Shown here piece after piece: positions 15,946 through 29,806 of a stretch of DNA of 64,000 nt. The position numbers and the translations under genes were made by a program. The notes under the pieces were generated by a model. It was not told the DNA's origin, did not search any database, and saw only the letters and a program-made list of their open reading frames with translations. Location: positions 62,001 to 126,000 of the forward strand of contig NZ_JAHFUW010000005.1 in assembly GCF_023264855.1 (NCBI RefSeq), read 5' to 3'. The first letter of the stretch is position 1. Each line of letters opens with the position of its first letter. The stretch comes from Herbiconiux sp. Its GTDB lineage: Bacteria; Actinomycetota; Actinomycetes; Actinomycetales; Microbacteriaceae.

Positions 15946-16017
15946 TCCGAACCGGTGCTGTTCTGATTCGACGTGGTGCTGTCCTGATTCGACGTGGTGC
16001 TGCTCTGATCGGCGTGC
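15934..16017 (+). repeat. Four 21-base tandem repeats at the 3' end of the HNH gene
   Basis: Units at 15934-15954, 15955-15975, 15976-15996 and 15997-16017 share GTGCTGTTCTGATTCGA with a few changes. Because 21 bases is seven codons, the gene frame is kept and each unit repeats the VL(F/S/L)-stop ending, giving four in-frame TGA stops in a row. The rest of the gap to 16108 shows nothing clear. Confidence 0.85.
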
Positions 16018-16108
16018 CCGGCTCGGTTTCCGCACCTCAACACGCTGATGTTGCCGTCCTTTACGCGAGCCTCCGGTCCGTGGGCGCGCGCTGTTTGGCT
16101 CGCGGCTC

Positions 16109-17419
16109 GTGAGCGCTCGAGCGGACCGACCCGCCATCCGACTGGCCCTGAACTACTTTCCTGCGGGCTGGCACGAGGGCATCTGGCACGGTGCCGGCGA
16201 TCCCGCCTCGTTGCTGACCGACATCGACTACTTCGTGTGGCTGGCCCTGGCGGCCGAAGCCGCGAAGCTCGACGCCCTCTTCTTGGCCGACACCATCGGC
16301 GGGCTGCAGCTGCGATCGCACCGCGCCCTCTGGGGTGGCCAGGATCCGACCGTGCTGCTCGCCGCCATCGCGAGCCGCACGAGCAACATCGGCCTGGTCT
16401 CCACCGTCTCGGGACTGTTCGGCAACCCGGTGGAGGTCGCCCGCAAAGTCGCGACCCTCGACCACGCGTCGCGGGGCCGCGCCGCCTGGAACATCGTGAC
16501 CAGTCAGGGCGAGACCACCCGGACGGTTTTCGGCGTGGACGAGCACTTCTCCGACGAGGTGCGCTACCGCCGGGCGGGGGAGTTCGCGACGCTGGTCGAC
16601 GCCTACTGGGACTCGCTGCCGCGCGAGGCGATCGTGGCCGACGAGTCACGCGGGGTCTACCTCGACGCCGCCCGTACGCGACCGGTGAACTTCGAGGGGG
16701 AGCACTTCCGCTCCAGTGGCGTGCTCCCGGTTCCGGTGAGCGTGCACGGCAAGCCACTCGTCTTCCAGGCCGGCAGCTCGGAGGCGAGCATCGACTTCGG
16801 CGTCACCCAGGCGGACGCCCTGTTCACCGCGCGCCGCGACCTGGCGGGCTCGCAGACGTTCTACGCCGACGTGCACGCCAAAAGCGCAGCAGCCTCACGC
16901 CGGCCGCCGCTGGTGCTGCCGGGGGTGTTCATCTACCCCGGGGCCACCGAGGCCGAAGCCGTCGCCCGCAAGGCCGAACTCGACGAACGGGTGAACGTCG
17001 ATCTCGGCCTGCCCCTGCTCGCGGCCCGCCTCGGACTGCCGCCGGAGTCATTGCGGCTGGACGCGGAACTGCCGTACGAGCTGCTCGCGACCGTCGTCGG
17101 TGACTCGCACGTCGCCGACCTTCCGGAGCAGATCGTGGACGAGGCCCGCCGCAACCGCTGGACCGTGTGTCAGATCCTCACCCACAACGGCTTGGGCGCG
17201 CACCGGGTGCTCGTGGGCGCCGGCGAGCAGATCGCCGACCAATTGCTGGATTGGGTCGACGCACGAGGTGCCGACGGGTTCGTGCTGAGCTTCGGCGACT
17301 ACCGGCACGACGTGCCGATCTTCGCCGAGACGGTCATTCCGCGCCTGCAGCAGCTCGGCCGGTTCCGCACGGAGTACGACGGGCCGACGACGACACTCCG
17401 GCAGAACCTCGGCCTCTGA
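16109..17419 (+). CDS. NtaA/SnaA/DszA-family FMN-dependent monooxygenase
   Basis: A 436-residue flavin monooxygenase of the bacterial luciferase fold, NtaA subgroup. Typical segments are IRLALNYFPAGWHEGIWHG at the N-terminus, LDALFLADTIGG, IGLVSTVSGLFGNPVEVARK, RAAWNIVTSQGE, the long DEVRYRRAGEF insertion and LVFQAGSSEASIDFG. Relatives oxidise nitrilotriacetate, dibenzothiophene sulfone or S-modified cysteine derivatives using FMNH2 from a separate reductase, which is not seen here. The GTG at 16109 has no good ribosome site. It is convergent with the next monooxygenase gene. Substrate unknown. Confidence 0.88.
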   Translation: MSARADRPAIRLALNYFPAGWHEGIWHGAGDPASLLTDIDYFVWLALAAEAAKLDALFLADTIGGLQLRSHRALWGGQDPTVLLAAIASRTSNIGLVSTVSGLFGNPVEVARKVATLDHASRGRAAWNIVTSQGETTRTVFGVDEHFSDEVRYRRAGEFATLVDAYWDSLPREAIVADESRGVYLDAARTRPVNFEGEHFRSSGVLPVPVSVHGKPLVFQAGSSEASIDFGVTQADALFTARRDLAGSQTFYADVHAKSAAASRRPPLVLPGVFIYPGATEAEAVARKAELDERVNVDLGLPLLAARLGLPPESLRLDAELPYELLATVVGDSHVADLPEQIVDEARRNRWTVCQILTHNGLGAHRVLVGAGEQIADQLLDWVDARGADGFVLSFGDYRHDVPIFAETVIPRLQQLGRFRTEYDGPTTTLRQNLGL

Positions 17420-17452
17420 GCGATCGGCTGATCGACAGGTGGGTGCCGATCA

Positions 17453-17506
17453 GACCGCCGCCGACTATCAGGCCGCCGCCGACTACCTGACCGCCGCCGA
17501 TGACCC
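17453..17506. repeat. Three 18-base tandem repeats at a convergent gene boundary
   Basis: Units at 17453-17470, 17471-17488 and 17489-17506 share the core CCGCCGCCGA. They cover the end of the minus-strand monooxygenase gene (stop at 17483) and the short spacer. They encode its last residues and probably shifted its stop codon. Confidence 0.7.
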
Positions 17507-18868
17507 GACGGATGACCGTCCCTGCGCTCCGATGAGGTCGCGGAGGGTGGCGCCCTCGTCATAGGAGCGCCGGTACACCCCGCGCTCCTGCAACTCGGGC
17601 ACGACCGTGTCGACGAACTCGTCGAGCCCGTAGGGATTCGTGTGGCCCACGATCACGAAGCCGTCGGAGGCGCGCTCTTGCACGAAACGGTCGATCTCCG
17701 CCGCCACCTGGGCGGGAGTGCCGACCAGACCGTGACGGGCCGTGAGTGCGATGACGAGCTCCCGGATGCTCAGCCTCTCGGCCTCGGCCCGCTCGCGCCA
17801 GGCGTCGGCGGTGGCCTTCGGATCGGCCGCGTTGTTCGCTCGGCCCTGCGTGATGCCGGCCCCTGCCGGATCGGGGTCGATCGGGGGGAGCGGCCCATCC
17901 GGATCGTACTCGGTGAGGTCTCGGCCCCAGACCCGCTCCAGGAAGGCGATCGCGGTGGCCCCCGAGGTCTGCGCCAGAGCGATCTCGCGAGCCTTCTCCT
18001 CGGCCTCGGCCCGGCTGTCGCCGAGCGCGAAGCCGATGGCCGGCAGCACCTTGAGTGAGTCCTCGTCGCGCCCGTGCCCGGGGAGTCGCCCCTTCACATC
18101 GGCGTAGAACCTCTGGGCATCGGCGAACTCGCTGTGCAGCGAGAAGATCACGTCGGCGTGCTCGGCGGCGAAGTCCCGGCCCGCGGCCGAGTCTCCGGCC
18201 TGCACGATCAGCGGGCGCCCCTGCGGACCTCCCGGCAGGGTGGCGCGGCCGGTCACGTCGAAGTGCAGTCCGTGGTGCTCGACCTCACCGACACCGCCGT
18301 CGGCGAGGAAGCGGCCGCTCGCCTTGTCGGCGACCACGGCATCCGGAGCCCAGCTGCTCCAGAACCGGTCAGCCACCTCGAGGAACTCGGCCGCGCGCAC
18401 ATAGCGCTGATCGCGGTCGAGGAAGGCACCCCGGCGGAAGTTCGCACCGTGGAAGGCGTCGGAGGTGGTGACGATGTTCCAGCCGATCCGGCCGCCACTC
18501 AGGTGGTCGGCGGTGGCGAGTTGGCGCGCGAGCTCGTAGGGCTCGTTGAACGTGGCGCTGAGGGTGCCGACGAGACCGATGTGCTCTGTGACGGCGGCCA
18601 CGGCGGCGAGGATGGCCAGCGTGTTCGGCCGGCCCGCCACATCCGCCTCGTAGATGCGGCCTTTGTGCTCGCGCACCCGGAGGCCCTCGGCCAGGAAGAG
18701 GTAGTCGAAGAAGCCGCGCTCGGCGTTCTGCGCGAAGTGCCGGAACGACGAGAAGGCGATCTGGCTCTCGGAACGCGGATCGCTCCAGAGGGTCGTGTTG
18801 TTCACCCCGGGGAAGTGCGCGGCCAGGTGCACCTGGCGTCGGGCGTCGAGGGAGGACGGAGTGGTCAT
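17483..18868 (-). CDS. NtaA/DmoA-family FMN-dependent monooxygenase
   Basis: A 461-residue luciferase-fold monooxygenase. It shows FPGVNNTTLWSDPRSESQIA, FFDYLFLAEGLRVREH, IGLVGTLSATFNEPYELARQ, GRIGWNIVTTSDAFHGANF, RYVRAAEFLEVADRFWSSW, LIVQAGDSAAGRDFAAEHAD and GFVIVGHTNPYGLDEFV, the standard order for this subgroup. The start ATG at 18868 overlaps the TGA of the upstream monooxygenase (18865-18868), so both are read from one transcript. The last residues (SVGSSAAVR) derive from the 18-base tandem repeats. Likely substrate class is an S- or N-substituted amino acid derivative, inferred from the neighbouring importer. Confidence 0.88.
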   Translation of the reverse strand: MTTPSSLDARRQVHLAAHFPGVNNTTLWSDPRSESQIAFSSFRHFAQNAERGFFDYLFLAEGLRVREHKGRIYEADVAGRPNTLAILAAVAAVTEHIGLVGTLSATFNEPYELARQLATADHLSGGRIGWNIVTTSDAFHGANFRRGAFLDRDQRYVRAAEFLEVADRFWSSWAPDAVVADKASGRFLADGGVGEVEHHGLHFDVTGRATLPGGPQGRPLIVQAGDSAAGRDFAAEHADVIFSLHSEFADAQRFYADVKGRLPGHGRDEDSLKVLPAIGFALGDSRAEAEEKAREIALAQTSGATAIAFLERVWGRDLTEYDPDGPLPPIDPDPAGAGITQGRANNAADPKATADAWRERAEAERLSIRELVIALTARHGLVGTPAQVAAEIDRFVQERASDGFVIVGHTNPYGLDEFVDTVVPELQERGVYRRSYDEGATLRDLIGAQGRSSVGSSAAVR

Positions 18869-20115
18869 GCGGAGACCTCCGAATCGCGGAGTGCCGGCTG
18901 GTGGGTGAAGAGGTTCGCCGGGCGCTCCAGGCCGAGCGTGTCGCGGAGCGTGCGGGGAGCGGTTCCGGGGGCGACACCGTCGGGGGCGGGCGCGCGCAGA
19001 CCGGCCTGCTCGAGTGCGGGCACGACCGAACGGGTGATCGTGTCGAGATCGGCGGGCAGGCGAGCCGGGCGCAGCCGGAAGCCGTCGAGGCCGAGGCGCT
19101 GACCCTCGCGGAGGCGCTCGACCAGCGCGGCCGGCGTGGATGCCACGACGAGAGCATCGGATGCGAGTGTGTCGCCGGCCTGATCGTCGAGGCGCTCCAG
19201 GGCGGCCGCCGCATCCTCGGCGTTGTCCTCGAGCAGCACCACGAGGTCGGCGTAGACGAGCAGCGGAGGCAGCGAGGTCGGCCGCAGGCGGGCCTCGGCG
19301 TCGTGCACTTCGGCCAGGATCTCGCGCAGCTGCTCGGGGGTGTGCGGGGTGATGCACACGGCGTCGGCATGCGCGGCCGCGAACTCGAACGGCACGGTGG
19401 CGTGCGCCAGCGCGATCACCGGCGGCTGGCCCTGCGGGGAGCGCGGCGTGATGGAGGCGCCCTTGATCCGCACGTACCGGCCCTCGAATTCCGTGTAGTG
19501 CACCTTCTCGCCGTCCAGGAACCGGCCGGAGTCGACGTCGCGGACGATGGCGTCGTCCTCCCAGCTGTCCCAGACCCGGCGGACGGCATCCACCACCTCG
19601 CCGGCCTCGTCGAAGAGCTCGTGCACGATCGCCTGGCCCTCGCCACGGCGGTAGGCCTCGAGGTCGAGGGCCGGAACGGTGCGACGGCCCACCGATGCGG
19701 CGTCGTCGGGCGAGGCCGAGATGCGCGGCTGCCAGCCGGCACGGCCCTCGCTCACGTGATCGAGGGTCTGCAGCGCCGTCGCCACGTGGAAGGGTTCGGT
19801 GTGCGTAGTGGTGACCGTGGGCACGAGCCCGATCCGGGAAATTCGCGGGGCCACGTAGGAGGCGATCAGCAGCGCGTCGAGCCGGCCGCGCAGCTGATCG
19901 ACGCGGTCGTCGGCGGCACCGAAACGCGAGGACTGCAGCCCGAAGGAGTCCTCGATCGTGACGAAGTCGACGCCGCCGGCTTCGGCGGCGCGCACCAGGT
20001 CGAGCCAATAACCGGGAGTGAAGATCTCGGTCGGCCGGGCCGCGGGCTCGCGCCAGGACGCCGGATGCCAGCCCGTCCCTTCCAGAGCGACCGCCAGATG
20101 CAGATTCCGTGTCAT
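18865..20115 (-). CDS. Luciferase-like (LLM) flavin-dependent oxidoreductase
   Basis: A 416-residue luciferase-fold protein starting MTRNLHLAVALEGTGWHPAS. It contains EAGGVDFVTIEDSFGLQ, RIGLVPTVTTTHTEPFHVAT, GRAGWQPRISASPDDAASVG and PPVIALAHATVPFEFAAAHA. It is first in a two-gene minus-strand operon and overlaps the next gene by four bases. The ATG at 20115 begins the first beta strand; upstream in-frame codons are non-homologous. A 122-base divergent spacer separates it from the monooxygenase at 20238, so one regulator could control both directions. Confidence 0.85.
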   Translation of the reverse strand: MTRNLHLAVALEGTGWHPASWREPAARPTEIFTPGYWLDLVRAAEAGGVDFVTIEDSFGLQSSRFGAADDRVDQLRGRLDALLIASYVAPRISRIGLVPTVTTTHTEPFHVATALQTLDHVSEGRAGWQPRISASPDDAASVGRRTVPALDLEAYRRGEGQAIVHELFDEAGEVVDAVRRVWDSWEDDAIVRDVDSGRFLDGEKVHYTEFEGRYVRIKGASITPRSPQGQPPVIALAHATVPFEFAAAHADAVCITPHTPEQLREILAEVHDAEARLRPTSLPPLLVYADLVVLLEDNAEDAAAALERLDDQAGDTLASDALVVASTPAALVERLREGQRLGLDGFRLRPARLPADLDTITRSVVPALEQAGLRAPAPDGVAPGTAPRTLRDTLGLERPANLFTHQPALRDSEVSA

Positions 20116-20237
20116 GCGACCAGCCGAACACGCCGCGGCGCGGGCGGGACAGCCGCGCCGTAACGAGACGGAACACAACGCCACAGAGTGAAACATTCCG
20201 GCATCGGACGCCTCGCCGCGCGCATGCTCGACACACG

Positions 20238-21713
20238 ATGACCGACTCCGTTCCCCGCGCGCGCGGCCTGCTCCTCGGAGCGGCCGTCCGGCCCCTCGGA
20301 GCCTTTCCTTCGGGCTGGCGCATCGACGGAGCCCATCACGACCCGCTCGCCGAGCCGGCAGCCCTGCGCCGCCTGGCCGCGGAGGCCGAGCGGGCGCACC
20401 TGCACCTGCTGTTCTTCGGCGACTGGCTCGCCACCGGGCCCGAGCTCGAGTTCACCGATCCGTACCTGCTGGCGCGCGTCGATCCGCTCTCCGCCGTCGC
20501 CTACCTGGCGGCTCTCACCGAGCGGATCGGGCTGATCGCCACAGTCAGCACGAGCCACAGCGATCCGTTCGCCGTCGCCCGCTCGGCCTCATCGATCGAT
20601 CAGCTCAGCGCCGGACGTCTCGGCCTGAACCTGGTGGCGGGCTCCGAACCGGGGGCCGAGGCCAATCAGCGCATCAACGGAGCGGGGCTGGGCCGCCACG
20701 AGGTCGCCGAGGAGTACCTCGAGGTGCTGCGAGGGCTCTGGGACAGCTGGGACGACGAGGCCGTCGTCGCCGACGCGGCCGGCGGCGTGCTGCTGGATCA
20801 CACGCTGATCCGCACACTCGACCAGACGGAGGGCGCCTTCCGGGTGGCCGGCCCCGCGCTGACTCCGCGCCCGGTGCAGGGCCAGATCCCGATCGTGCAC
20901 GCCGATGTCTCGGCCAGGGCGCGGCGGTTCTCGGCGACGCACGCCGACGTGCACCTCGTGTCGCCGGCCGGGGTGGAGGACGGCATCCGGATCGTCTCCG
21001 AGGTGCGCGCCGCCGCGCGCGACCGAGGGCGCGATCCCGCCGACCTCGCAGTGCTGGTACCCGTGCTGCCGATCATCGCTCCGACCCGCGAGGAGGCCTG
21101 GGCGCTCTACGACCGGTTGGTCGAGCTGGTGCCCGTGTCCGGTCCGGGCGCCCCGGCGGGGGTTCCGGATGATCGCACCGACACCGCGATCCGGCGCGTC
21201 GTCGGGGTTCCCATGCTGGTACGAGGGCTCGACGACGTCGTCAGCGAGAGCGATGCCGGGCGGTTCACCGCTGCTGGAGTGCGACTCCTGGAGATCGTGC
21301 GGCAGCGCTCGGGACGGGTTCCCGGCGGGCACCGGCCGGTCACCTACCGGCACCTGCTGATCGCCCGCCTGTTCACGATGCCGGTGATCGTCGGGTCGCC
21401 CGCCGACGTGGCCGATCATCTCGCGACCTGGTTCGCCCGCGGTGCCGCTGACGGCTTCCTGGTGCAGAGCGCCTTCCTGCACGAGCAGTTCGAGGCCTTC
21501 ACCCGCACGGTCGTGCCGATCCTGGTGGAGCGCGGGCTGTTCCGGGCGGAGTACACGGCGACGACCCTGCGCGGGCACCTCGGCCTGTCCCGGCCGGAGC
21601 GGCAGCAGCACCCGGCGCGCGACCGGAGCGTCGCACCGCGCCCCTCCCTGAACGACCGCACCCCGCCGGTGGCCAGTGCCTTCGACGGGGTGGTGGGTCT
21701 GTTCACGAACTGA
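20238..21713 (+). CDS. NtaA-family FMN-dependent monooxygenase
   Basis: A 491-residue luciferase-fold monooxygenase with GLLLGAAVRPLGAFPSGWR, LHLLFFGDWLATG, IGLIATVSTSHSDPFAVARS, GRLGLNLVAGSEPGAEANQR and EVAEEYLEVLRGLWDSWDDE. The C-terminal region has FARGAADGFLVQSAFLHEQF and ends with about 40 extra residues (Arg/Pro-rich, then FDGVVGLFTN). The ATG at 20238 is chosen because the conserved GLLLGAAV strand begins ten residues later. It is transcribed away from the 20115 gene and converges on the binding-protein gene, leaving only 14 bases between stops. Substrate unknown. Confidence 0.85.
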   Translation: MTDSVPRARGLLLGAAVRPLGAFPSGWRIDGAHHDPLAEPAALRRLAAEAERAHLHLLFFGDWLATGPELEFTDPYLLARVDPLSAVAYLAALTERIGLIATVSTSHSDPFAVARSASSIDQLSAGRLGLNLVAGSEPGAEANQRINGAGLGRHEVAEEYLEVLRGLWDSWDDEAVVADAAGGVLLDHTLIRTLDQTEGAFRVAGPALTPRPVQGQIPIVHADVSARARRFSATHADVHLVSPAGVEDGIRIVSEVRAAARDRGRDPADLAVLVPVLPIIAPTREEAWALYDRLVELVPVSGPGAPAGVPDDRTDTAIRRVVGVPMLVRGLDDVVSESDAGRFTAAGVRLLEIVRQRSGRVPGGHRPVTYRHLLIARLFTMPVIVGSPADVADHLATWFARGAADGFLVQSAFLHEQFEAFTRTVVPILVERGLFRAEYTATTLRGHLGLSRPERQQHPARDRSVAPRPSLNDRTPPVASAFDGVVGLFTN

Positions 21714-21727
21714 GCTCGTTCAGGGCC

Positions 21728-22741
21728 TCAGCTGTTGTCCAGCGGCAGTCCGGGCGGGTTCACCAGCGAAGTCTCGACGGCCTCGTCCTGCAGGCCCCAG
21801 GCATCCAGCCACTGCTCGTACTGACCGTTCTCGATCAGGTAGTTGATGGCGGCGGCGACCGGCTCGGCCAGGCCGGAATCCTTCTTGACCGTCGCGGCGA
21901 TCAGGCCGTCGAGGGTCTCGCCGGCGCCGGAGAAGATGCCCGCGGTGCGGGTGGGGTTTGCGCCGTCCTCGGACTGCTTGTTCTGGTAGGCGATTCCGGG
22001 GTTCGGATTGAACTGCGCGTCGATCTGGCCGGAGTTCAGCGCCAGCGTGATGGAGTTCGCATCGGGGAAGTACACCACGTCGAGCGTCTTGCCCTCGGCC
22101 TCGAGCTTGCTCTTCCACTCCAGCAGGATCTTCTCCTGGTTGGTTCCCGAGCTCGTCGCCACCGTCAGGCCGGCGAGGTTCTCGTAGTCGTCGTCGAACT
22201 CCCAGTCGTTCGAGGCGAGCACCTGGAAGGCCAGGTTGTCGCCGCGGTAGGAGGCGAAGTCGTACTTCTCCTTGCGCTTCTCGGTGTCGGTGATGTTCGA
22301 GAAGCCGACATCCGTGGCCCCGGTGTCGATGCCGACGAACAGGTTGTCCCAGGTGGCGTTGCTGACGACCGGCTTCAGGCCGAAGACGGCGGCGACGAGG
22401 CGGCCGAGGTCGGGCTCGGAGCCGGTGAGGGTCTCGTTGTCGTCACCGGTGAAGGCGAGCGGCGGGAAACCGGCCGGCAGGGCGCCGATGCCGATGGTGA
22501 GCTCACCGCTGTCCAGCACCTCCTGGGGCAGCGTGGTGCGGATCTCGTCGACGGTCGAGACCTCGATCTGGGTCTCGGTGCCGGCGCCGTTGGAGAAGGC
22601 GCCCACCGTGACGGTGCCGGAGGCGGCCGCGGTGTCGGTGGCGTCGGCACTCGTGGTGCAGGCGGCGAGGCCCGCGGTCAGGATCGCCGCGGTGGCGAGG
22701 GCTCCGATCGTGCGCAGCCGCTTGGCGGTGGGAGTGGTCAT
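21728..22741 (-). CDS. Amino-acid-type ABC transporter substrate-binding lipoprotein
   Basis: A 337-residue extracytoplasmic binding protein. A signal peptide ends in the lipobox LTAGLAAC. The mature part has the SBP_bac_3 layout: LTIGIGALPAGFPPLAF, SEPDLGRLVAAVFGLKPVV, WDNLFVGIDTGATDVGFSNI, LAGLTVATSSGTNQEKIL and SGQIDAQFNPNPGIAYQN. The family binds polar amino acids, cystine or their derivatives. It is the last gene of a five-gene minus-strand operon, 70 bases after the ATPase gene, so it may have its own ribosome loading or an extra promoter. The fold class supports an amino-acid-like ligand rather than a simple alkanesulfonate. Confidence 0.9.
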   Translation of the reverse strand: MTTPTAKRLRTIGALATAAILTAGLAACTTSADATDTAAASGTVTVGAFSNGAGTETQIEVSTVDEIRTTLPQEVLDSGELTIGIGALPAGFPPLAFTGDDNETLTGSEPDLGRLVAAVFGLKPVVSNATWDNLFVGIDTGATDVGFSNITDTEKRKEKYDFASYRGDNLAFQVLASNDWEFDDDYENLAGLTVATSSGTNQEKILLEWKSKLEAEGKTLDVVYFPDANSITLALNSGQIDAQFNPNPGIAYQNKQSEDGANPTRTAGIFSGAGETLDGLIAATVKKDSGLAEPVAAAINYLIENGQYEQWLDAWGLQDEAVETSLVNPPGLPLDNS

Positions 22742-22811
22742 GGTGGTTCCTAGCTGTGTGAGTGGATGTGATGGGTGGAAGGGTGGAGCGGGTGGGGGAG
22801 GAGCGCGGTGC

Positions 22812-23569
<758 letters not shown>

Positions 23570-23573
<4 letters not shown>

Positions 23574-24568
23574 GCGATCGTGTTTCCCTGCGGGGTGCTG
23601 CGGATGCCGGCCACGGTGCGGCGGATCCGTTGCAGCGGCGTGAGCGGCAGCTCCCGCACCGAGCCGCGGGCGTAGAAGCGCTCGATGTAGAACTGCACGA
23701 TCGAGATCGCGCTGGTGAGGATGAGGTACCAGAGCGTGGCCACCACCAGCAGCGGGATGATGTCGGTGGGGTAGGTGCTGCCGAGGTTCTGCGCCACGCC
23801 GAACAGGTCGAGCAGCGACACGTAGAACAGCAGCGAGCTGGCCTTGATCAGCCCGATGATCTGGTTCACGAAGGCCGGCACGATGGAGCGCAGCGCCTGC
23901 GGCAGCACGATCCGGAAGAACTGGCGGCGCTGCGGGATGCCGAGCGCCTTGGCGGCCTCGTGCTGGCCCTGGTCGACGGCGAGCACGCCGGCCCGCACGA
24001 TCTCGGCGCAGTAGGCGATCTCGCTCAGGCTGAGCCCGATCACACCCAGCACCAGCGGCGAGAGCAGGGTGAAGGTGGGCACCGCGAGCTGCGGGCCGAA
24101 CGGCACCCCGATGCCGACCGAGGGGTAGAGGTTGCCGAGGTTGAACAGGAAGATCAGTACCAGGATGAGCGGCACCGAGCGGAACAGCCAGATGTAGAGC
24201 CAGCTCAGGGTGCTGAGCACCGGGTTGCCGGAGAGCCGGGCGAGGGCCACCACGATGCCGCCGAGAAAGCTCACGACCGCGCTGATCGCCGTGGCCAGCA
24301 GGGTCAGTTGCAGGCCCTTCAGGATGGCGGGGCTGAAGAACCACTGGCTGACCTTCGCCCATTCCCAGGAGGGATTCGTGAAGAGGGTCTGCGCGAAGTT
24401 CGCCAGCAGCACGAGCACGAGGGCCGTGATGACCCAGCGCACCGGATGCCGCAGAGGCAGCACCTTGCGCTCGGCGAGCTGCTTGAGGTCGATGCCCGGG
24501 GGCAGCCCGGTCACGGCGGTGCCGTCGGCGGGCGGGGCCTGGTCGGGACGGTGGGTCACGGCGGTCAT
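23570..24568 (-). CDS. Amino-acid-type ABC transporter permease
   Basis: A 332-residue inner-membrane protein with an N-terminal cytosolic stretch of about 45 residues and five or six membrane segments. The HisM/GlnP-type features are [16 protein letters not shown] near the start of the permease domain and the EAA loop [20 protein letters not shown] that docks the ATPase. Only one permease gene is present, so it should work as a homodimer. It overlaps both neighbours by four bases (ATGA), placing it firmly in the operon with the acetyltransferase and monooxygenase. Confidence 0.93.
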
Positions 24569-25218
24569 CCTCGGAGCCCTTCGTCGGCACCCGGGTGGGA
24601 TCGGTAGAAGTCGACCAGCGACTCGTCGTGCCGGCGCTGCACCTCGGCCGTGTTCAGCGGCTCGCTGGTCAGCGACTTGGCGAAGCCGTGGATGATCACC
24701 TGCTCAGGGGCGAGGGTCGGGTCGAACAGCGGGGTGTAGCCGGCGGAGAAGTAGAGCCGCAGGGCTTCGGGCTGCCGCGGCCCGGTGGTGAGATATGCCA
24801 CGGCGATACCGCGCCGGCGTGCCTCGGCTTCGAGCTCGGCCACGACCCGGCCGGCCAGGCCCTGCCGGCGGTGCTCCGACGAGGTCCAGATCCGCTTCAG
24901 CTCGACGGCGTCGTCACCGAAGGGTTTGAAGGCCCCGCCGGCGATGGGCACACCATCTCGCAGCAGCAGCACGAAGGCGCCGCGGGGTGCCGCGAAGTCG
25001 GCCACCGGGTACCGGCTGAGTTCGGCGGCGGCGGGCTCGCCGAACGCCTCGCCGTAGCGCGAGTCGTATTCGCGGGTGAGGTCGTCGAGCAGCGGAGCCG
25101 CCCGCGGATCGTCGGCAGAGACGTACACGAACTCGTCTGTGCTTCCCTGGTGTCCGGTGCTTCCCTGGCGTCCTGTGCTTCCCGGGCGCTCGGCGGTGGA
25201 GTTCTCACGCAGCGACAC
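24565..25218 (-). CDS. GNAT-family N-acetyltransferase
   Basis: A 217-residue GNAT enzyme. The acetyl-CoA loop reads [20 protein letters not shown] and is followed by [20 protein letters not shown]. Its C-terminal tail ([20 protein letters not shown]) is unusual for the family. The N-terminus carries a low-complexity QGSTG repeat from an 18-base DNA repeat. The GTG at 25218 has AAAGGAG seven to nine bases upstream; the gene overlaps the monooxygenase by 14 bases and the permease by four. In B. subtilis yxe/ytm operons a GNAT enzyme N-acetylates S-modified cysteine before the monooxygenase acts, and the same role is inferred here. Confidence 0.85.
25139..25192 (-). repeat. Three 18-base tandem repeats inside the GNAT gene 5' end
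   Basis: Units at 25139-25156, 25157-25174 and 25175-25192 share GTGCTTCCC plus GG. They encode the repeated QGSTG-type segment before the catalytic fold, and copy-number change would lengthen or shorten the N-terminus by six residues without a frameshift. Confidence 0.75.
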
Positions 25219-26338
25219 GGGCTGCTCCTTTCAGGGTCGTCTGGGCCGCGGCGGCCGCATCCCGCTTGGCGACCTCGTCGCGCACGAGCGGGATGACGTA
25301 CCGCCCGAAGTCGATGGTGTCGTCGACGAAGTCGTAGCCACGGGCTGAGATGATGTCGACGCCGAGGTCGACGTAGTCGAGCAGGGCGGCCGCCACGGTC
25401 TCCGGGGTGCCCACCAGGGCGTTGGAGTTGCCGCGCCCGCCCGAGGCGGCGCTCACCGAGGTCCAGAGCGCCCGGTCGAAGCGGTCGCCCTGCTCGGCGA
25501 TCGACAGCAGTCGCTGCGATCCGGCGTTCTCGGGATTCTTCAGGTCGTCGATCGCCGCGGCCGGCAGAGCGCCCGTGCGCTCGCGCACCCGGCCGAGGAT
25601 CTGCTCCGCCTTCTGCCAGGCCAGCTCCTCGGTGGCGCCGAGGATCGGCCGGAAGGCCACCTGGATGCGCGGCCGCTCGCTGCGGCCGGCGGCGGTGGCG
25701 GCATCCGTGATCGTGGCGATCTGCTCGGCCGTGTTCGCGAGAGGCTCACCCCAGAGCGCGTAGATGTCGCTCTCCGCCGCGCCGATGGCGTAGGCGGCCG
25801 CCGACGATCCGCCGAACGACACCTGCGGGCGGGGCTGCTGCACGGGCCATACGTCGCTGACGAAGTCCTCGAAGCGGTAGTGCTCGCCGGCGAAGTCGAA
25901 GCGCTCGCGTGAGGTCCAGGCCTGCTTCAGGATGCGGATGTACTCGCCCGTGCGGGCGTAGCGCTCGTCTTTGCCGAGGTGGTCGCCCTCGGCCGCCTGA
26001 TCGGCCGTGGAGCCGCCCGTGATGATGTGCACGTTGACGCGGCCGTCGCTGATCTGGTCGAGGGTGGCCACGACCTTGGCGGCGTAGGTGGGCGCCGAGA
26101 CGTTGGGGCGGTGTGCCAGCAGCAGCTTGAGCCGGTCGAGCTTGGAGGCCACGAAGGCCGCCACGGTCGCCGGATCGGGGGAGCCGGAATGGTAGGCGAA
26201 GAGCACGCGGTCCCAGCCGTTGTCTTCGTGAGCGCGGGCCAGCCGAAGCGTGTAGTCCTTGTCGAAGCTCGCCCCGGAGCGTGCACGGGTCTCGCTGCCG
26301 TCGTTCGTGGCGGCGATGCCGAGGAATTCGATGGGCAC
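25205..26338 (-). CDS. SsuD-like FMNH2-dependent monooxygenase
   Basis: A 377-residue luciferase-fold enzyme close in length and layout to alkanesulfonate monooxygenase SsuD. It has the N-terminal VPIEFLGIAATNDGSE, DNGWDRVLFAYHSGSPDPAT, LLLAHRPNVSAPTYAAKVV, GRVNVHIITGGSTADQAAEG, YARTGEYIRILKQAWTS and the C-terminal LGVDIISARGYDFVDDTIDF. The GTG at 26338 is supported by AAGGA about eight bases upstream. It is the first gene of the importer operon, and the importer is of amino-acid type rather than SsuABC type. A sulfonated or S-oxygenated amino acid derivative is therefore a better guess than a plain alkanesulfonate. Confidence 0.87.
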   Translation of the reverse strand: MPIEFLGIAATNDGSETRARSGASFDKDYTLRLARAHEDNGWDRVLFAYHSGSPDPATVAAFVASKLDRLKLLLAHRPNVSAPTYAAKVVATLDQISDGRVNVHIITGGSTADQAAEGDHLGKDERYARTGEYIRILKQAWTSRERFDFAGEHYRFEDFVSDVWPVQQPRPQVSFGGSSAAAYAIGAAESDIYALWGEPLANTAEQIATITDAATAAGRSERPRIQVAFRPILGATEELAWQKAEQILGRVRERTGALPAAAIDDLKNPENAGSQRLLSIAEQGDRFDRALWTSVSAASGGRGNSNALVGTPETVAAALLDYVDLGVDIISARGYDFVDDTIDFGRYVIPLVRDEVAKRDAAAAAQTTLKGAARVAA

Positions 26339-26519
26339 GGATGAGTCCTTCCGGGAGTTCGGCGACCACCGGGATGAGGCCGGCGGCCGAGGGAGGTCGA
26401 TGGGGCGACGGTAACCAGCACGTTCCGCGCCGGGCAACGCGGGAGGTTCACAATTCGTCATCCGCGTCACGCTCTGTCACAAAGGGGCGCGCTGCCGTCG
26501 GGATGGTGACGCTGGGGGG
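26339..26519. promoter_or_regulatory. Divergent promoter region of the importer operon and the FAD operon
   Basis: This 181-base spacer separates the minus-strand importer operon from the plus-strand FAD/NAD(P) operon. It holds GCGTCAC (26464-26470) and GTGACGC (26506-26512) as an inverted pair, plus a further GTCAC at 26476-26480. These could be regulator half-sites, but no clear -10 or -35 was identified. No regulator gene lies nearby. Confidence 0.35.
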
Positions 26520-28661
26520 ATGTCTGCCGCCCTTGCTGTTCCCTCCCTCGCCGTGATCGGTGCCGGGCCGCGCGGCGTCGGTGTGCTGGAGCGCCTCGCC
26601 GCCAACCTCGACGAGCTGTGGCCTGAGCGCACCCCGCTGGTGGTGCACCTGATCGACCCGCATCCCGCCGGGCCCGGCCGGATCTGGCGCCACGAGCAGT
26701 CGCCGCTGCTGAAGCTCAACTCGATGGCGGCCGACGTGACCATGTTCACCGACGAGAGCTCGACGATCGACGGACCCGTGCGACCCGGCCCCTCGCTGAT
26801 CGACTGGGTGGGGCAGGTGAACGAGGGCCGCATCCGGATCGACGAGTCGAAGCTGGATGCCGCGCTCCGCGCCGAACTGCGCCAGCTCGGCCCGGCGAGT
26901 TTTCCGACCCGGCGGCTGCAGAGCCTGTACCTGCGCTGGTTCCACGAGGAGGCGCTCGCCCTGCTCGGCGACCGGGTGCAGGTGGTCGAGCACGCGGCGC
27001 GCGCCCAGAACGTGACGGACCTGCCCGACGGCAGCCAACGGGTCGAACTAGACACCGGCCAGCGGATCGAGGTCGACCTCGTGCTCTATTCGCTCGGCCA
27101 CACCGGCACCGATCCCGACCCGCGGCACGCGGCCCTGATCGACTTCGCGAAGCGCCGCGAGCTGTACTACCTGCCGCCCGCTTTCACCGCGGATGCCGAC
27201 ACCCGGGCCATCGTGCCCGGGCAGCGGGTGCTGGTGCGCGGCTTCGGTCTCGCGGCGGTCGACCTCGTTGTGCTGCTCACCGAGGGGCGCGGCGGCCGCT
27301 TCGACCGGGTCGACGGCCGGTTGCGCTACGAGGCTTCGGGCAAGGAGCCGACGATCGTGATCGGATCCCGCCGCGGGGTGCCCTACCACTCCAAGATCGG
27401 CTCGACGCTGGCGGGCGAGCCGCCCGCGCCACGGTTCTTCACCGCCGCGATCGCGGCGCAATTGGAGGCAGAGAAGGAGAGCCTCGACTTCGCCACCGAC
27501 ATCTGGCCGCTGATCGCGCAGGAGATGCTCTGGGGCTATTACCGGGAACTGTTCACGGGGCATCCGGAGCGCGTCTCGCTGCCTTGGGAGGAGTTCGCCG
27601 AGCGTTTCGCCGCGCTCGACCCGCGGGCCTGCATCGTGGCCGATTCGACACCGGATGCCGCGGCAGCACTGTCCGCACCCGAGGGCCCGCGCACCCGGGG
27701 TCACGCGCTGCCGGAGTGGAGCGCCGCCGACCGGGAGCGGATCGAAGCCGACGCCCGTCTGCTCACCGCGCTGATCGAATCCGCGGTGCCCGAGGAGATC
27801 GATCGGCTCTTCCTGCCCGCCCTCGACCGCCCACTGGCGGGCGCCCGCTTCGCCGGGATCGACGACCTGCAGGCGGCCGTGCGCGACTACATCCAGCGCG
27901 ACCTGTGGCTGCGCACGCTCCCCGAGCACAGTGCCACGCTCGGCCTGTTCTTCGCGCTGCTGACCGCGCTGTTCGCCTTCGCCGACCTGGTGGCCTCGCC
28001 CAAGTGGACCGCGCGCTCACGGGTGGAGGACATCAACGGCTGGTGGCTGGGCTACTTCAGCTTCATCGCCAGCGGGCCGCCCGCGCACCGGCTCGAGGAG
28101 CTGCTCGCACTCTCCGAGGCCGGCGTCGTGCGCTTTCTCGGCGGCGAGATGTGGCTGGAGGCCGACGAGCAGCAGGGCGTCTTCCGCGCCGGCAGCGCGA
28201 ACCACGACGAGCAGGTCACCGCCACGGCGCTCGTCGACGCCTGGCTGCCCGACACGAGCATCGCCCGCAGCGACAACGAGCTGCTGCGGGTGCTGCTGGC
28301 CTCGGGCTCGGCCCTGGAAGAGGTGGCGCGCGACGAACAGTACAGCGGGCCGACCGGCCGGCTCACCGTGCGGCAGCACGACCGGCGCGTGGTGCACGGC
28401 TCGGGCGAGGCATCCGGACGCAGCTACGCCGTCGGGCCGTACACGAACTCGCCGTTCGTCGGCGCCTTCTCGCGGCCGCGCACGAACGCGGTCTCGTTCC
28501 GCGAGAACGACCGGGTGGCGCGCGCCCTGCTCACCCACCTCGCCGAGCTCGACGAGTCGCGCCGTGCGAGCGAGCAGTGGCTGCCCGAACCGGGCCGTTT
28601 CTCCGACCGGCTGTGGTTCGAGTTCGCGGCCGAGCCGTACCGGTGGGATCGTCGGGCATGA
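26520..28661 (+). CDS. Large FAD/NAD(P)-binding protein (HpaE-like, NAD_binding_9 type)
   Basis: A 713-residue protein. The N-terminus is a dinucleotide-binding fold with VIGAGPRGVGVLERL (residues about 12-26), LKLNSMAADVTMF, and a second nucleotide-site segment VLVRGFGLAAVDLVVLLTEG near 240. The rest (about 330-713) is mostly helical and not recognised, except for a C-terminal stretch YAVGPYTNSPFVGAFSRPRT. Such proteins cluster with monooxygenases and amino acid importers in actinobacteria, but their reaction is not known. The ATG at 26520 follows a GGGGGG tract. Its stop overlaps the next ATG by four bases. Confidence 0.8.
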   Translation: MSAALAVPSLAVIGAGPRGVGVLERLAANLDELWPERTPLVVHLIDPHPAGPGRIWRHEQSPLLKLNSMAADVTMFTDESSTIDGPVRPGPSLIDWVGQVNEGRIRIDESKLDAALRAELRQLGPASFPTRRLQSLYLRWFHEEALALLGDRVQVVEHAARAQNVTDLPDGSQRVELDTGQRIEVDLVLYSLGHTGTDPDPRHAALIDFAKRRELYYLPPAFTADADTRAIVPGQRVLVRGFGLAAVDLVVLLTEGRGGRFDRVDGRLRYEASGKEPTIVIGSRRGVPYHSKIGSTLAGEPPAPRFFTAAIAAQLEAEKESLDFATDIWPLIAQEMLWGYYRELFTGHPERVSLPWEEFAERFAALDPRACIVADSTPDAAAALSAPEGPRTRGHALPEWSAADRERIEADARLLTALIESAVPEEIDRLFLPALDRPLAGARFAGIDDLQAAVRDYIQRDLWLRTLPEHSATLGLFFALLTALFAFADLVASPKWTARSRVEDINGWWLGYFSFIASGPPAHRLEELLALSEAGVVRFLGGEMWLEADEQQGVFRAGSANHDEQVTATALVDAWLPDTSIARSDNELLRVLLASGSALEEVARDEQYSGPTGRLTVRQHDRRVVHGSGEASGRSYAVGPYTNSPFVGAFSRPRTNAVSFRENDRVARALLTHLAELDESRRASEQWLPEPGRFSDRLWFEFAAEPYRWDRRA

Positions 28662-29806
28662 CCGGTTTCATCGACACCGTCGTGGTCGGCGGCGGGGCGA
28701 TGGGTTCGGCCGCCGCCTACGCCCTCGCCCGGCGTGGCACCGAGGTGGCCCTGTTCGAGCGCTTCGGCCCGGGCCACGTGCAGGGCGCCTCGCACGGCGC
28801 CTCGCGCAACTTCAACCTCTCCTACGGCGATGCGGTGCACCTGCGGATGCTCGAGCGGGCTCTTCCCGCCTGGCGTGAGCTCGAGGCGGTCACCGGCCGC
28901 CGGCTGCTCGACCAGGTGGGCATCGTGAACCACGGTCGCATCCCCGATCTCGATCGGATCGCGGGCCTGCTGCCGGAGTTCGGTTTCGAGGCCGAGCTGC
29001 TGCCCGCCGAGGAAGCGGGCCGGCGCTGGCCGGGCATCCGGTTCGACGGGCAGGTGCTGCACACTCCGCAGGCGGGCCGGCTCGACGCCGACGCCGCCGT
29101 GGCCGCCTTCCAGAGTGCGGCGGCGGCGCTCGGCGCCTCGGTGAACCACCACGCACGGGTCGTCGACATCCGGATCCTGGATGACGACCGGGCCCGCATC
29201 GAGCTGCAGCGCACCGATGCGGCGGGGGAGCCGCGCGGCGATCGCGAGGTGATCGAGTGCCGCCGGCTGGTGGTGACCCTCGGTGCCTGGACCGCGAAGC
29301 TGCTCGGCGGCCGGATCGCCCTGCCGCAGCTCACCGTCACCCAGGAGCAGCCGGCGCACTTCGCCGAGCGGGAGCCGGAGGCGGCGAGCCCCTGGCCGGG
29401 GTTCAACCATGCTCCGGATGCGGCGCACTCCCGCTACGGCTACTGGCGGTCGCCCGTCTACGGCATGCAGACGCCCGGTCAGGGCATCAAGGCCGGCTGG
29501 CACGGTGTGGGGCCGGTGACCGATCCGGATGCCCGCAGCTTCGTCAGCGAGGCCGGGCAGCTCGAGGCGCTGCGCCGCTACGTGCGGGAGTGGCTGCCCG
29601 GGGCGGATCCCGACGACTTCACCGAGATCAGCTGCACGTACACGACGACGGTGGACAGCGCCTTCGTGATCGACCGCGTCGGCCCGGTCGCCGTGGGCGC
29701 CGGCTTCTCGGGCCACGGCTTCAAGTTCACGCCCGTGGTGGGGGAGCTGCTCGCCGGTCTGACGGAGGGGGCCGGGGCGCCGCCGGTGTTCTCTCTGAGC
29801 CGATAG
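28658..29806 (+). CDS. Monomeric sarcosine oxidase / N-methyltryptophan oxidase-like flavoenzyme
   Basis: A 382-residue FAD amine oxidase of the MSOX/MTOX family. It shows the N-terminal FAD motif VVVGGGAMGSAAAYALA, the ASHGASRNFNLSYGD active-site loop, and the C-terminal GFSGHGFKFTPVVGELLA. The Cys in EISCTYTTTVDSAFVIDRVG aligns with the cysteine that binds FAD covalently in MSOX. The family oxidises secondary amino acids to the primary amine, an aldehyde and H2O2. It overlaps the upstream FAD/NAD(P) gene by ATGA, forming a two-gene operon opposite the importer operon. Its substrate may be an N-alkyl amino acid made or imported by the neighbours. Confidence 0.88.
   Translation: MTGFIDTVVVGGGAMGSAAAYALARRGTEVALFERFGPGHVQGASHGASRNFNLSYGDAVHLRMLERALPAWRELEAVTGRRLLDQVGIVNHGRIPDLDRIAGLLPEFGFEAELLPAEEAGRRWPGIRFDGQVLHTPQAGRLDADAAVAAFQSAAAALGASVNHHARVVDIRILDDDRARIELQRTDAAGEPRGDREVIECRRLVVTLGAWTAKLLGGRIALPQLTVTQEQPAHFAEREPEAASPWPGFNHAPDAAHSRYGYWRSPVYGMQTPGQGIKAGWHGVGPVTDPDARSFVSEAGQLEALRRYVREWLPGADPDDFTEISCTYTTTVDSAFVIDRVGPVAVGAGFSGHGFKFTPVVGELLAGLTEGAGAPPVFSLSR

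What the first reader, a model, noticed from the sequence alone, without database searches (positions are those of the whole stretch)
16109..29806. Candidate salvage system for S-modified amino acids with five different luciferase-like monooxygenases
Five LLM monooxygenases (16109, 17483, 18865, 20238, 25205), an amino-acid-type ABC importer, a GNAT acetyltransferase, a 713-residue FAD/NAD(P) protein and a sarcosine-oxidase-like enzyme lie in 14 kb. The order monooxygenase - GNAT - permease - ATPase - binding protein, all but the last gene overlapping, parallels B. subtilis yxe/ytm operons, where GNAT acetylation precedes flavin-dependent C-S cleavage. The deacetylase and flavin reductase of those pathways are missing here, and the FAD pair is an extra, so the route may be new. 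Function is inferred from order and family; no substrate is visible.
Basis: partly seen in the sequence, partly recalled or inferred. Interest (0 to 1): 0.75.

Follow-up and report, generated by a model that had tools for sequence, protein, structure and literature searches.

The report
Actinobacterial amino-acid oxygenation salvage module
A group of actinobacteria shares an uncharacterised six-gene set that appears to import an odd, probably sulfur-containing, amino acid and take it apart with two different oxygen-using flavin enzymes; the other monooxygenases noticed nearby are optional neighbours.

Summary
The genes are there as described, but the natural unit is smaller. Of 16 genomes of the genus searched, the same 8 have the 713-aa flavoprotein and LLM_E, and in all 8 the core is flavoprotein <> LLM_E-GNAT-permease-ATPase-binding protein, read from one divergent promoter region with a conserved GTCAC-repeat site that the window's genome holds once. 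LLM_A-D and the sarcosine-oxidase-like gene come and go. The flavoprotein is not an extra: it is a full-length homologue of L-aspartate N-hydroxylase FzmM. In the 80 best GTDB relatives the catalytic Asn is kept (80 of 80) but three residues of the substrate chamber (R412, N413, R416) are not (0 of 80), so it probably oxygenates something else. LLM_E is SsuD-like but has lost both sulfonate-binding arginines. FMN reductases, rhodanese, thioredoxin and M20 genes lie near the flavoprotein in some relatives; the host genome has the 'missing' reductase and deacetylase families elsewhere. Best reading: salvage of an S-substituted amino acid by N-acylation, S-oxygenation by the flavoprotein and C-S cleavage by LLM_E. 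Sulfur and the order of steps are inferred; a nitrogen-centred pathway is the main rival. A new variant of a known kind.

The parts
26520..28661 (+). Core. 713-aa class-B-type flavin monooxygenase, homologue of L-aspartate N-hydroxylase FzmM, with a changed substrate chamber
   Evidence: PF13454; only phmmer match in the PDB is 8cp2/8cp5, E 4e-76, profile E 6e-157 with the next hit at 0.003; model pLDDT 91.9; VIA-align Z 38.4, 2.4 A over 587 residues, next entry Z 17; chamber residues
25205..26338 (-). Core. LLM_E, SsuD/SfnG-like two-component FMN monooxygenase without the two sulfonate-binding arginines (longest ORF to 26470)
24565..25218 (-). Core. GNAT N-acyltransferase, overlaps LLM_E by 14 bases
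   Evidence: PF00583; orthologues aligned
23570..24568 (-). Core. Amino-acid-type ABC permease
   Evidence: TIGR01726 over cut-off, 54 vs 42 bits
22812..23573 (-). Core. ABC ATPase, best NCBIfam model TcyN (cystine), below its cut-off
   Evidence: 325 vs 406 bits
21728..22741 (-). Core. Family-3 solute-binding protein; carboxylate Arg156 kept, Pro246 at the place of the usual Asp ligand of the alpha-ammonium
26446..26481 (+). Conserved divergent-promoter site GTTCACAATTCGTCATCCGCGTCACGCTCTGTCACA, direct repeats of (G/T)TCAY; putative operator of an unknown regulator
   Evidence: one copy in the genome
28658..29806 (+). Accessory. Sarcosine / N-methyl amino acid oxidase-like FAD enzyme, overlaps the flavoprotein gene by 4 bases
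   Evidence: PF01266; below MTOX and SoxA cut-offs; in 5 of 8 genus loci (window)
17483..18868 (-). Accessory. LLM_B, NtaA/DmoA family; best PDB match YtnJ (CmoJ), nearly tied with 7e36_B
18865..20115 (-). Accessory. LLM_C, divergent NtaA-like partner of LLM_B
   Evidence: mostly next to LLM_B in relatives
20238..21713 (+). Accessory. LLM_D, NtaA/DmoA family; best PDB match YtnJ (CmoJ), 212 vs 167 bits for the next family
16109..17419 (+). Accessory; no close orthologue (E 1e-130) in the other 15 genus genomes. LLM_A, NtaA/DmoA family; best PDB match 5tlc (DszA type), nearly tied with YtnJ

Best explanation
A six-gene core (flavoprotein, divergent from LLM_E-GNAT-permease-ATPase-binding protein) imports and dismantles an S-substituted amino-acid-like compound. 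The ABC importer brings it in; the GNAT acylates its amine; the flavoprotein, an NADPH- and O2-using class-B-type monooxygenase, oxygenates the thioether sulfur, perhaps more than once as its relative FzmM does on nitrogen; LLM_E, with FMNH2 from a reductase encoded elsewhere, cleaves the C-S bond of the oxidised intermediate. Deacetylation and reduction are done by enzymes encoded elsewhere. LLM_B/C, LLM_D, LLM_A and the SOX-like enzyme are optional additions that may widen the substrate range. Shown by computation: gene order, conservation of the core, shared promoter site, FzmM-type fold with the catalytic Asn kept and chamber residues lost, loss of the two sulfonate-binding arginines in LLM_E. 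Inferred: sulfur as the oxygenated atom, order of the steps, role of the GNAT, identity of the substrate, role of the accessory genes.
For: Flavoprotein and LLM_E occur in the same 8 of 16 genus genomes with the same core order in all 8 (window). All 11 close LLM_E orthologues (76% identity or more, window's included) in 150 family genomes lie within 10 kb of the flavoprotein gene; the three next-best genomes (52-55%) have no flavoprotein match; hypergeometric 9e-10 for genome co-occurrence, relatedness ignored. In 80 GTDB loci across Actinomycetota an LLM lies within the up to 10 kb of flank in 59, LLM_E in 33, GNAT in 40, binding protein in 30; LLM_E, GNAT and part of the importer together in 22. 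Fold and chamber. LLM_E: the two sulfonate-binding arginines are Ala and Ser/Thr, the Trp is kept; each of the three is needed in MsuD (PMC8234197, section 7 read); SfnG-type proteins, whose named substrate dimethylsulfone is neutral, also lack both arginines. Sulfur-linked genes near the flavoprotein: MsuE over cut-off in L100, SsuE in L116, Flavin_Reduct plus FMN_red in L141, rhodanese in L062 (Pfam; tblastn also L065, L101), thioredoxin-like and DUF4395 in L061, M20 in L060 and L075, O-acetylhomoserine sulfhydrylase in L113, metE and MTHFR in L154. LLM_B and LLM_D have YtnJ/CmoJ as best solved match.
Against: The only characterised relative of the flavoprotein oxygenates nitrogen, not sulfur. 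No gene in the core is sulfur-specific by curated cut-off. 17 of 80 GTDB loci, 13 of them Amycolatopsis, have none of the other ten genes over threshold within the flank. The nine more distant flavoprotein loci of the family lack the core genes, seven of them with a CMD peroxidase; seven distant proteins keep Arg412 but lose Arg577. LLM_E has an Arg at the second-shell His of the sulfonate site (11 of 11 LLM_E and paralogues), so it may still bind an anion. Pro246 in the binding protein hints at a ligand without a free alpha-ammonium, which fits import of free S-alkylcysteine poorly. The sulfur-linked neighbours are each in few loci, several of which (L100, L113, L116, L154, L060, L075) lack LLM_E over threshold, and no background frequency was measured. 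No regulator or transcription data tie the promoter site to sulfur.
Confidence: 0.43

Rival explanations
1. Nitrogen route: the flavoprotein N-oxygenates the amine of an imported N-substituted or unusual amino acid, as FzmM does with aspartate, and LLM_E and the NtaA-like LLMs cleave C-N bonds; the SOX-like oxidase removes N-methyl groups. The module supplies nitrogen or carbon.
For: Closest characterised relative of the flavoprotein is an N-hydroxylase. LLM_A, B and D belong to the NtaA/DmoA family, whose members NtaA and EmoA cleave C-N bonds (activity recalled). SOX-like gene in 5 of 8 genus loci (window). Pro246 in the binding protein.
Against: R412, N413 and R416 of the substrate chamber are kept in 0 of 80. 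LLM_E is nearest the SsuD/SfnG C-S group. MsuE/SsuE reductases, rhodanese and sulfhydrylase appear as neighbours in some relatives. An N-acylated amine would not need N-hydroxylation, so the GNAT is hard to place.
Confidence: 0.23
2. An ordinary member of the B. subtilis yxe/ytm type pathway: GNAT acetylates an S-alkyl or S-succino cysteine, an LLM cleaves it, an M20 enzyme elsewhere deacetylates, and the flavoprotein takes the place of the CmoO sulfoxidase.
For: LLM_B and LLM_D closest to YtnJ/CmoJ in the PDB. CmoO-CmoJ logic of sulfoxidation then C-S cleavage (PMC10863075, section 2 part 1 read).
Against: The CmoJ-like LLMs are not in the constant core: 3 of 8 genus loci lack all of LLM_A-D in the 20 kb fetched. 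The core LLM is SsuD-like. No M20 in the cluster; YxeQ not tested.
Confidence: 0.18
3. A sulfonate utilisation operon in which LLM_E is an SsuD/MsuD-type sulfonatase.
For: LLM_E's best solved relatives are MsuD and SsuD; the Trp is kept and an Arg stands at the second-shell His, which might compensate.
Against: Both arginines of the sulfonate site are replaced in all 8 LLM_E proteins compared; 212 bits vs cut-off 518; importer of the amino-acid type.
Confidence: 0.06
4. No joint pathway: the genome is simply rich in LLMs (48) and these genes are neighbours by chance.
For: 48 LLM genes genome-wide, some in other small groups; LLM_A has no close orthologue in the other 15 genus genomes.
Against: Conserved order and promoter site across genera; co-occurrence of LLM_E and the flavoprotein. 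It remains likely for LLM_A.
Confidence: 0.05

Closest known systems
L-aspartate N-hydroxylase FzmM type (PDB 8cp2, Streptomyces sp. V2; PMC10404684)
   Same: Full-length fold; catalytic Asn62 and Arg577 in 80 of 80 GTDB relatives, Arg13 in 75 of 80
   Different: R412, N413 and R416 of the substrate chamber in 0 of 80, R266 replaced by Lys in 80 of 80; encoded beside an importer operon
B. subtilis yxe/scm (S-succinocysteine) and ytm/cmo (S-alkylcysteine) operons
   Same: LLM, GNAT and three-part amino-acid ABC importer together
   Different: Core LLM is SsuD-like rather than YxeK/CmoJ-like; adds a class-B-type flavoprotein; no M20 deacetylase or PF01613 flavin reductase in the cluster
Alkanesulfonate / dimethylsulfone monooxygenases SsuD, MsuD, SfnG
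   Same: LLM_E belongs nearest this group; Trp of the SsuD site kept; MsuE/SsuE-type reductases near the flavoprotein in some relatives
   Different: Both sulfonate-binding arginines lost; below SsuD and SfnG cut-offs; Arg at the second-shell His; loop matches neither

Membership tests
L-aspartate N-hydroxylase (FzmM) | FzmM fold over full length | tested here: met
   VIA-align Z 38.4, 2.4 A, 587 residues
L-aspartate N-hydroxylase (FzmM) | Catalytic Asn62 over the flavin | tested here: met
   26 of 26 family proteins, 80 of 80 GTDB proteins
L-aspartate N-hydroxylase (FzmM) | Aspartate contacts N413 and R416, and R412 of the overlapping sulfate site | tested here: not met
   0 of 80; window L, F, A. 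R409, R266 and R276 were aligned differently in the two calls and are not relied on, except Lys at 266 in 80 of 80
Alkanesulfonate monooxygenase SsuD/MsuD (LLM_E) | Sulfonate-binding arginines R225 and R296 of MsuD | tested here: not met
   Ala, and Ser or Thr, in 8 of 8 LLM_E
Alkanesulfonate monooxygenase SsuD/MsuD (LLM_E) | W195 of MsuD | tested here: met
   kept in 8 of 8 LLM_E and 3 of 3 paralogues
Dimethylsulfone monooxygenase SfnG (LLM_E) | TIGR04021 cut-off 382.95 bits | tested here: not met
   153.2 bits
NtaA/DmoA family (LLM_A, B, D) | TIGR03860 cut-off 279.7 bits | tested here: met
   A 352.7, B 411.5, D 302.6
NtaA/DmoA family (LLM_C) | TIGR03860 cut-off 279.7 bits | tested here: not met
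   205.1 bits
CmoJ/YtnJ (LLM_B, LLM_D) | C-S cleavage of N-acetyl-S-alkylcysteine sulfoxide | not testable with these tools
   best PDB match only; for LLM_B nearly tied with another entry
yxe/scm locus | at least three of YxeK, YxeL, YxeMNO, YxeP, YxeQ clustered (definition in PMC9706529, section 4) | tested here: inconclusive
   family-level match for acetyltransferase and transporter; LLMs not shown orthologous to YxeK; no M20 in the cluster; YxeQ not tested
Sarcosine / N-methyl-tryptophan oxidase (SOX) | NCBIfam cut-offs (MTOX 257, soxA_mon 479.65) | tested here: not met
   202.6 and 191.8 bits; DAO superfamily only

The most novel reading that the evidence does not exclude
A third flavin route for breaking C-S bonds in amino acids, spread through Actinomycetota: an FzmM-type flavoprotein that has changed from N- to S-oxygenation, making a sulfoxide or, by repeated oxidation, a sulfone, paired with a non-sulfonate SsuD-like LLM that cleaves it, under a dedicated promoter site.
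Probability: 0.32. Interest if true: 0.75.

Novelty: new variant of a known kind. Interest (0 to 1): 0.55.

Why it matters
If right, the FzmM family, known from the paper read here for making nitro compounds, has a second branch with another substrate: one capped scan of GTDB genomes gave 583 relatives, of which the best 80 were examined. A small conserved module with two oxygenases, one importer and one promoter site makes the substrate question directly testable, and would add to the few known ways by which bacteria recover sulfur from modified amino acids.

Tried and rejected
Five-LLM unit: rejected, because LLM_A-D vary among genus members. Sulfonatase reading of LLM_E: set low on the lost arginines, not to zero, because an Arg stands at the neighbouring His. 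Aspartate N-hydroxylase reading of the flavoprotein: rejected on the chamber residues. The first alignment put R266 and R276 in or next to gaps; the larger one puts Lys at 266 and mostly Pro or Leu at 276 and loses R409 to a gap, so I rely on 412, 413, 416, 577, 62 and 13.

Regulon by promoter site: two searches of the genome gave only the one copy, so no wider regulon could be read. The scan of related loci (only the window and L056-L113 were scanned, not the 62 loci L114-L175) gave a similar site before the oppA-like operon of L070 (score 16.8) and weaker ones elsewhere; not followed. Several scanned loci, such as L061, L111 and L113, gave no site at the flavoprotein start. The matrix was built from sequences it then found again, some near-duplicates, so those scores are circular; the contrast of 1.79 versus about 0.5 bits per column (22 sequences) is descriptive. 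A consensus promoter and terminator scan of 26300-26560 found nothing.

Binding-protein structure: the model (pLDDT 82) ranks polar-amino-acid binding proteins in general (Z 19-23) and does not choose a ligand.

Literature: the searches listed no paper that I could see to be about this module; two searches returned none at all. Only open-licence PMC papers are searched, so this is weak evidence of absence.

Searches were made for the check.
Full report
WHAT IS THERE. The host genome is 4.37 Mb in 97 contigs. Two handles of its own genus, G350 and G351, have the flavoprotein on contigs of exactly the lengths of the named records Herbiconiux ginsengi NZ_FNPZ01000003.1 and H. oxytropis NZ_JANLCK010000007.1, so the window's genus is most likely that of Herbiconiux, family Microbacteriaceae. 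The genome holds 48 LLM genes; five in 13.7 kb is more than uniform placement gives (p about 0.0006), although LLMs also cluster elsewhere.

THE UNIT IS SMALLER. The flavoprotein occurs in 8 of 16 genomes of the genus and LLM_E in the same 8. In all eight the flavoprotein is divergent from LLM_E-GNAT-permease-ATPase-binding protein (window; L056 and L206-L211). The other genes vary in the roughly 20 kb looked at: LLM_B with LLM_C in 5 of 8 (in L207 LLM_B lies beyond the fetched edge and is seen in the same record's locus L096), the SOX-like gene in 5 of 8, LLM_D in 4 of 8 (window added). LLM_A has no match at E 1e-130 in the other 15 genomes. In three genomes (L056, L210, L211) the stretch holds the core without any of LLM_A-D or SOX.

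RECIPROCAL TEST. Among 150 genomes drawn from the family, 27 have a flavoprotein match at E 0.001 and 14 an LLM_E match at E 1e-100 (the same handles). LLM_E identities fall into 76-100% (11 genomes, the window's included) and 52-55% (3 genomes). All 11 of the first group have the flavoprotein within 10 kb; none of the three has a match. The chance of 11 of 11 falling within 27 of 150 is 9e-10 if genomes were independent, which they are not.

BREADTH. By tblastn within the flank (up to 10 kb; shorter at contig ends; identity 60% or more for LLM_E, 40% for others, half the query covered): any LLM 59 of 80, LLM_E 33, GNAT 40, permease 46, ATPase 47, binding protein 30, LLM_B 30, LLM_C 16, SOX-like 5; LLM_E with GNAT and some part of the importer 22. 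17 of 80, 13 of them Amycolatopsis, have none of the ten other genes over threshold. Some of the 80 are the same genomes as family handles (for instance L105, L107, L109). Of the family loci, 20 with closer flavoproteins show any LLM in 18, LLM_E in 10, GNAT in 13; nine more distant ones show only one SOX-like hit; seven of the nine have a CMD peroxidase (cluster c5) and five a peptide-type importer with an SDR (family names from representatives). So the core is one of several settings of this flavoprotein family.

THE FLAVOPROTEIN. By phmmer its only PDB relative is 8cp2/8cp5 (E 4e-76); with the alignment profile E is 6e-157 over almost the whole length and the next hit 0.003. This is the L-aspartate N-hydroxylase of Streptomyces sp. 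V2 (PMC10404684: outline and abstract, passages, section 8 read). The AlphaFold2 model (pLDDT 91.9) aligns to it with Z 38.4 and 2.4 A over 587 residues; the next entry has Z 17 (Foldseek ranking). The catalytic Asn62 is kept in 26 of 26 family proteins and 80 of 80 GTDB proteins. In the 80, Arg577 is kept in 80, Arg13 in 75, R412, N413 and R416 in none, and 412 is L, M, F, V, Y or I in all; R266 is Lys in 80. In the 26 family proteins N413 and R416 are kept in none, while the seven most distant keep Arg412 and lose Arg577. In the paper aspartate is held by Arg13, Arg276, Arg416, Arg577 and Asn413, R412 belongs to the overlapping sulfate site, and N413E abolishes hydroxylation. Hence oxygenase chemistry is probably kept and aspartate is probably not the substrate. 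That the new substrate is a thioether is inference.

LLM_E. Closest solved relatives are MsuD and SsuD. The sulfonate site of this group is W195, R225 and R296 in MsuD, each needed for activity (PMC8234197, section 7 and passages read). In LLM_E the Trp is kept, the first Arg is Ala and the second Ser or Thr in 8 of 8 proteins compared with E. coli SsuD; the three 52-55% paralogues have Thr at both places. The His next to the first Arg, a second-shell residue in MsuD, is Arg in all 11, so an anionic group may still be bound there. Three SfnG-type proteins over the SfnG cut-off lack both arginines too, and differ from LLM_E in the Trp and the loop. LLM_E is therefore not a sulfonatase by its site and not SfnG by its score.

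GNAT, IMPORTER. The GNAT and the binding protein keep many invariant residues across loci (9 and 15 proteins). In the binding protein Arg156, the usual carboxylate ligand (role recalled), is invariant in 15 of 15, and the place of the Asp that usually holds the alpha-ammonium (role recalled; placed by the alignment to AncQR) is Pro246 in 15 of 15. This hints at a ligand without a free alpha-ammonium and is a point against plain S-alkylcysteine import.

SHARED PROMOTER SITE. Between LLM_E and the flavoprotein lies GTTCACAATTCGTCATCCGCGTCACGCTCTGTCACA (window 26446-26481). In the scan of the window and L056-L113, 21 loci (three of them duplicates of others) have such a site with score 18 or more before the flavoprotein; its first base is 74-75 bases before the called flavoprotein start in 15 of the 21 (window start taken as 26520). 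They include Herbiconiux, Agreia, Cryobacterium, Compostimonas, Glaciihabitans and Mycetocola records. Column information is 1.79 bits over the first 16 positions against about 0.5 in flanks (22 sequences, training set included). The genome has no other copy with up to one mismatch in the first part, nor an exact copy of the repeat pattern.

SULFUR OR NITROGEN. For sulfur, near the flavoprotein: MsuE over its curated cut-off in L100 and SsuE in L116, FMN_red and Flavin_Reduct in L141; MsuE-like also in L065, L102, L103 by tblastn; rhodanese in L062 (Pfam) and by tblastn in L065, L101 and L107, the last the same locus as L062; thioredoxin-like and DUF4395 in L061; M20 in L060 and L075; O-acetylhomoserine sulfhydrylase in L113; metE and MTHFR in L154. 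Of these L061, L062, L065, L101 and L141 have LLM_E; L060, L075, L100, L113, L116 and L154 do not in the annotation rows. Each gene is in few loci and no background rate was measured. For nitrogen: FzmM itself, the NtaA family of the accessory LLMs, the SOX-like gene. I put sulfur at roughly twice nitrogen or a little more, the yxe/ytm-like rival counted with sulfur.

MISSING PARTNERS. The genome has 8 Flavin_Reduct matches, 9 M20 matches, one MsuE-like match below cut-off next to an LLM gene on contig C16, and an M20 gene next to an LLM gene on contig C17 together with GntR, amidase, aminotransferase and MFS genes. B. subtilis has three redundant N-acetylcysteine deacetylases (PMC12757645, abstract and outline). 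So absence from the cluster is no sign of a new route.

COMPARISON. The yxe/scm pathway is acetylation, LLM cleavage, deacetylation (PMC9706529, abstract and section 4); the cmo pathway is acetylation, sulfoxidation by CmoO, C-S cleavage by CmoJ, reduction, deacetylation (PMC10863075, outline and section 2 part 1). The present core works like these in outline but uses an FzmM-type oxygenase and an SsuD-like LLM. LLM_B and LLM_D, with YtnJ/CmoJ as best solved match (for LLM_B nearly tied), could be true cmo-type enzymes added in some genomes. Sulfur-source-dependent expression of two genes called nitrilotriacetate monooxygenase, and expression of one N-acetyltransferase gene, in Gordonia is described in PMC7661421 (passages), without a link to this module.

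VERDICT. A real, conserved and, in the searches made, undescribed module; a new variant of flavin-dependent salvage of modified amino acids, with the substrate unproven.

Noticed in passing
G000 contig C17 (36.6 kb; loci L085, L086): Five LLM genes on a small contig, with an M20 peptidase, amidase, aminotransferase, GntR/FCD regulator and MFS gene: a second candidate organosulfur or amino-acid salvage cluster of this genome.
   Followed up: partly
L077, L078, L080-L084: More distant FzmM-family flavoproteins sit with a CMD peroxidase (representative near but below TIGR04030) and, in five of them, an opp/nik-type importer (cluster c1; representative from L063 below TIGR04028) plus an SDR: another conserved setting of unknown function.
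   Followed up: partly
L066, L111-L113, L116, L149, L152, L154, L157, L163, L166-L168, L170: A DUF1684 protein recurs near the flavoprotein: tblastn hits in 14 loci including the query's own L152.
   Followed up: no
L070:18553: A GTCAC-repeat site like that of the core lies before the oppA-like gene of an importer-LLM_C-LLM_B-flavoprotein cluster (score 16.8), hinting that one regulator may serve both importer types.
   Followed up: no
window 15940-16020: Short imperfect repeats (CTGATTCGACGTGGTGCTG and variants) just before LLM_A, at the end of the 14542-15945 ORF.
   Followed up: no
window 26386-26445: Upstream of the site a GGCAAC-like block is also fairly conserved and resembles a block before LLM_E in Amycolatopsis; possibly part of the LLM_E promoter on the minus strand.
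   Followed up: no
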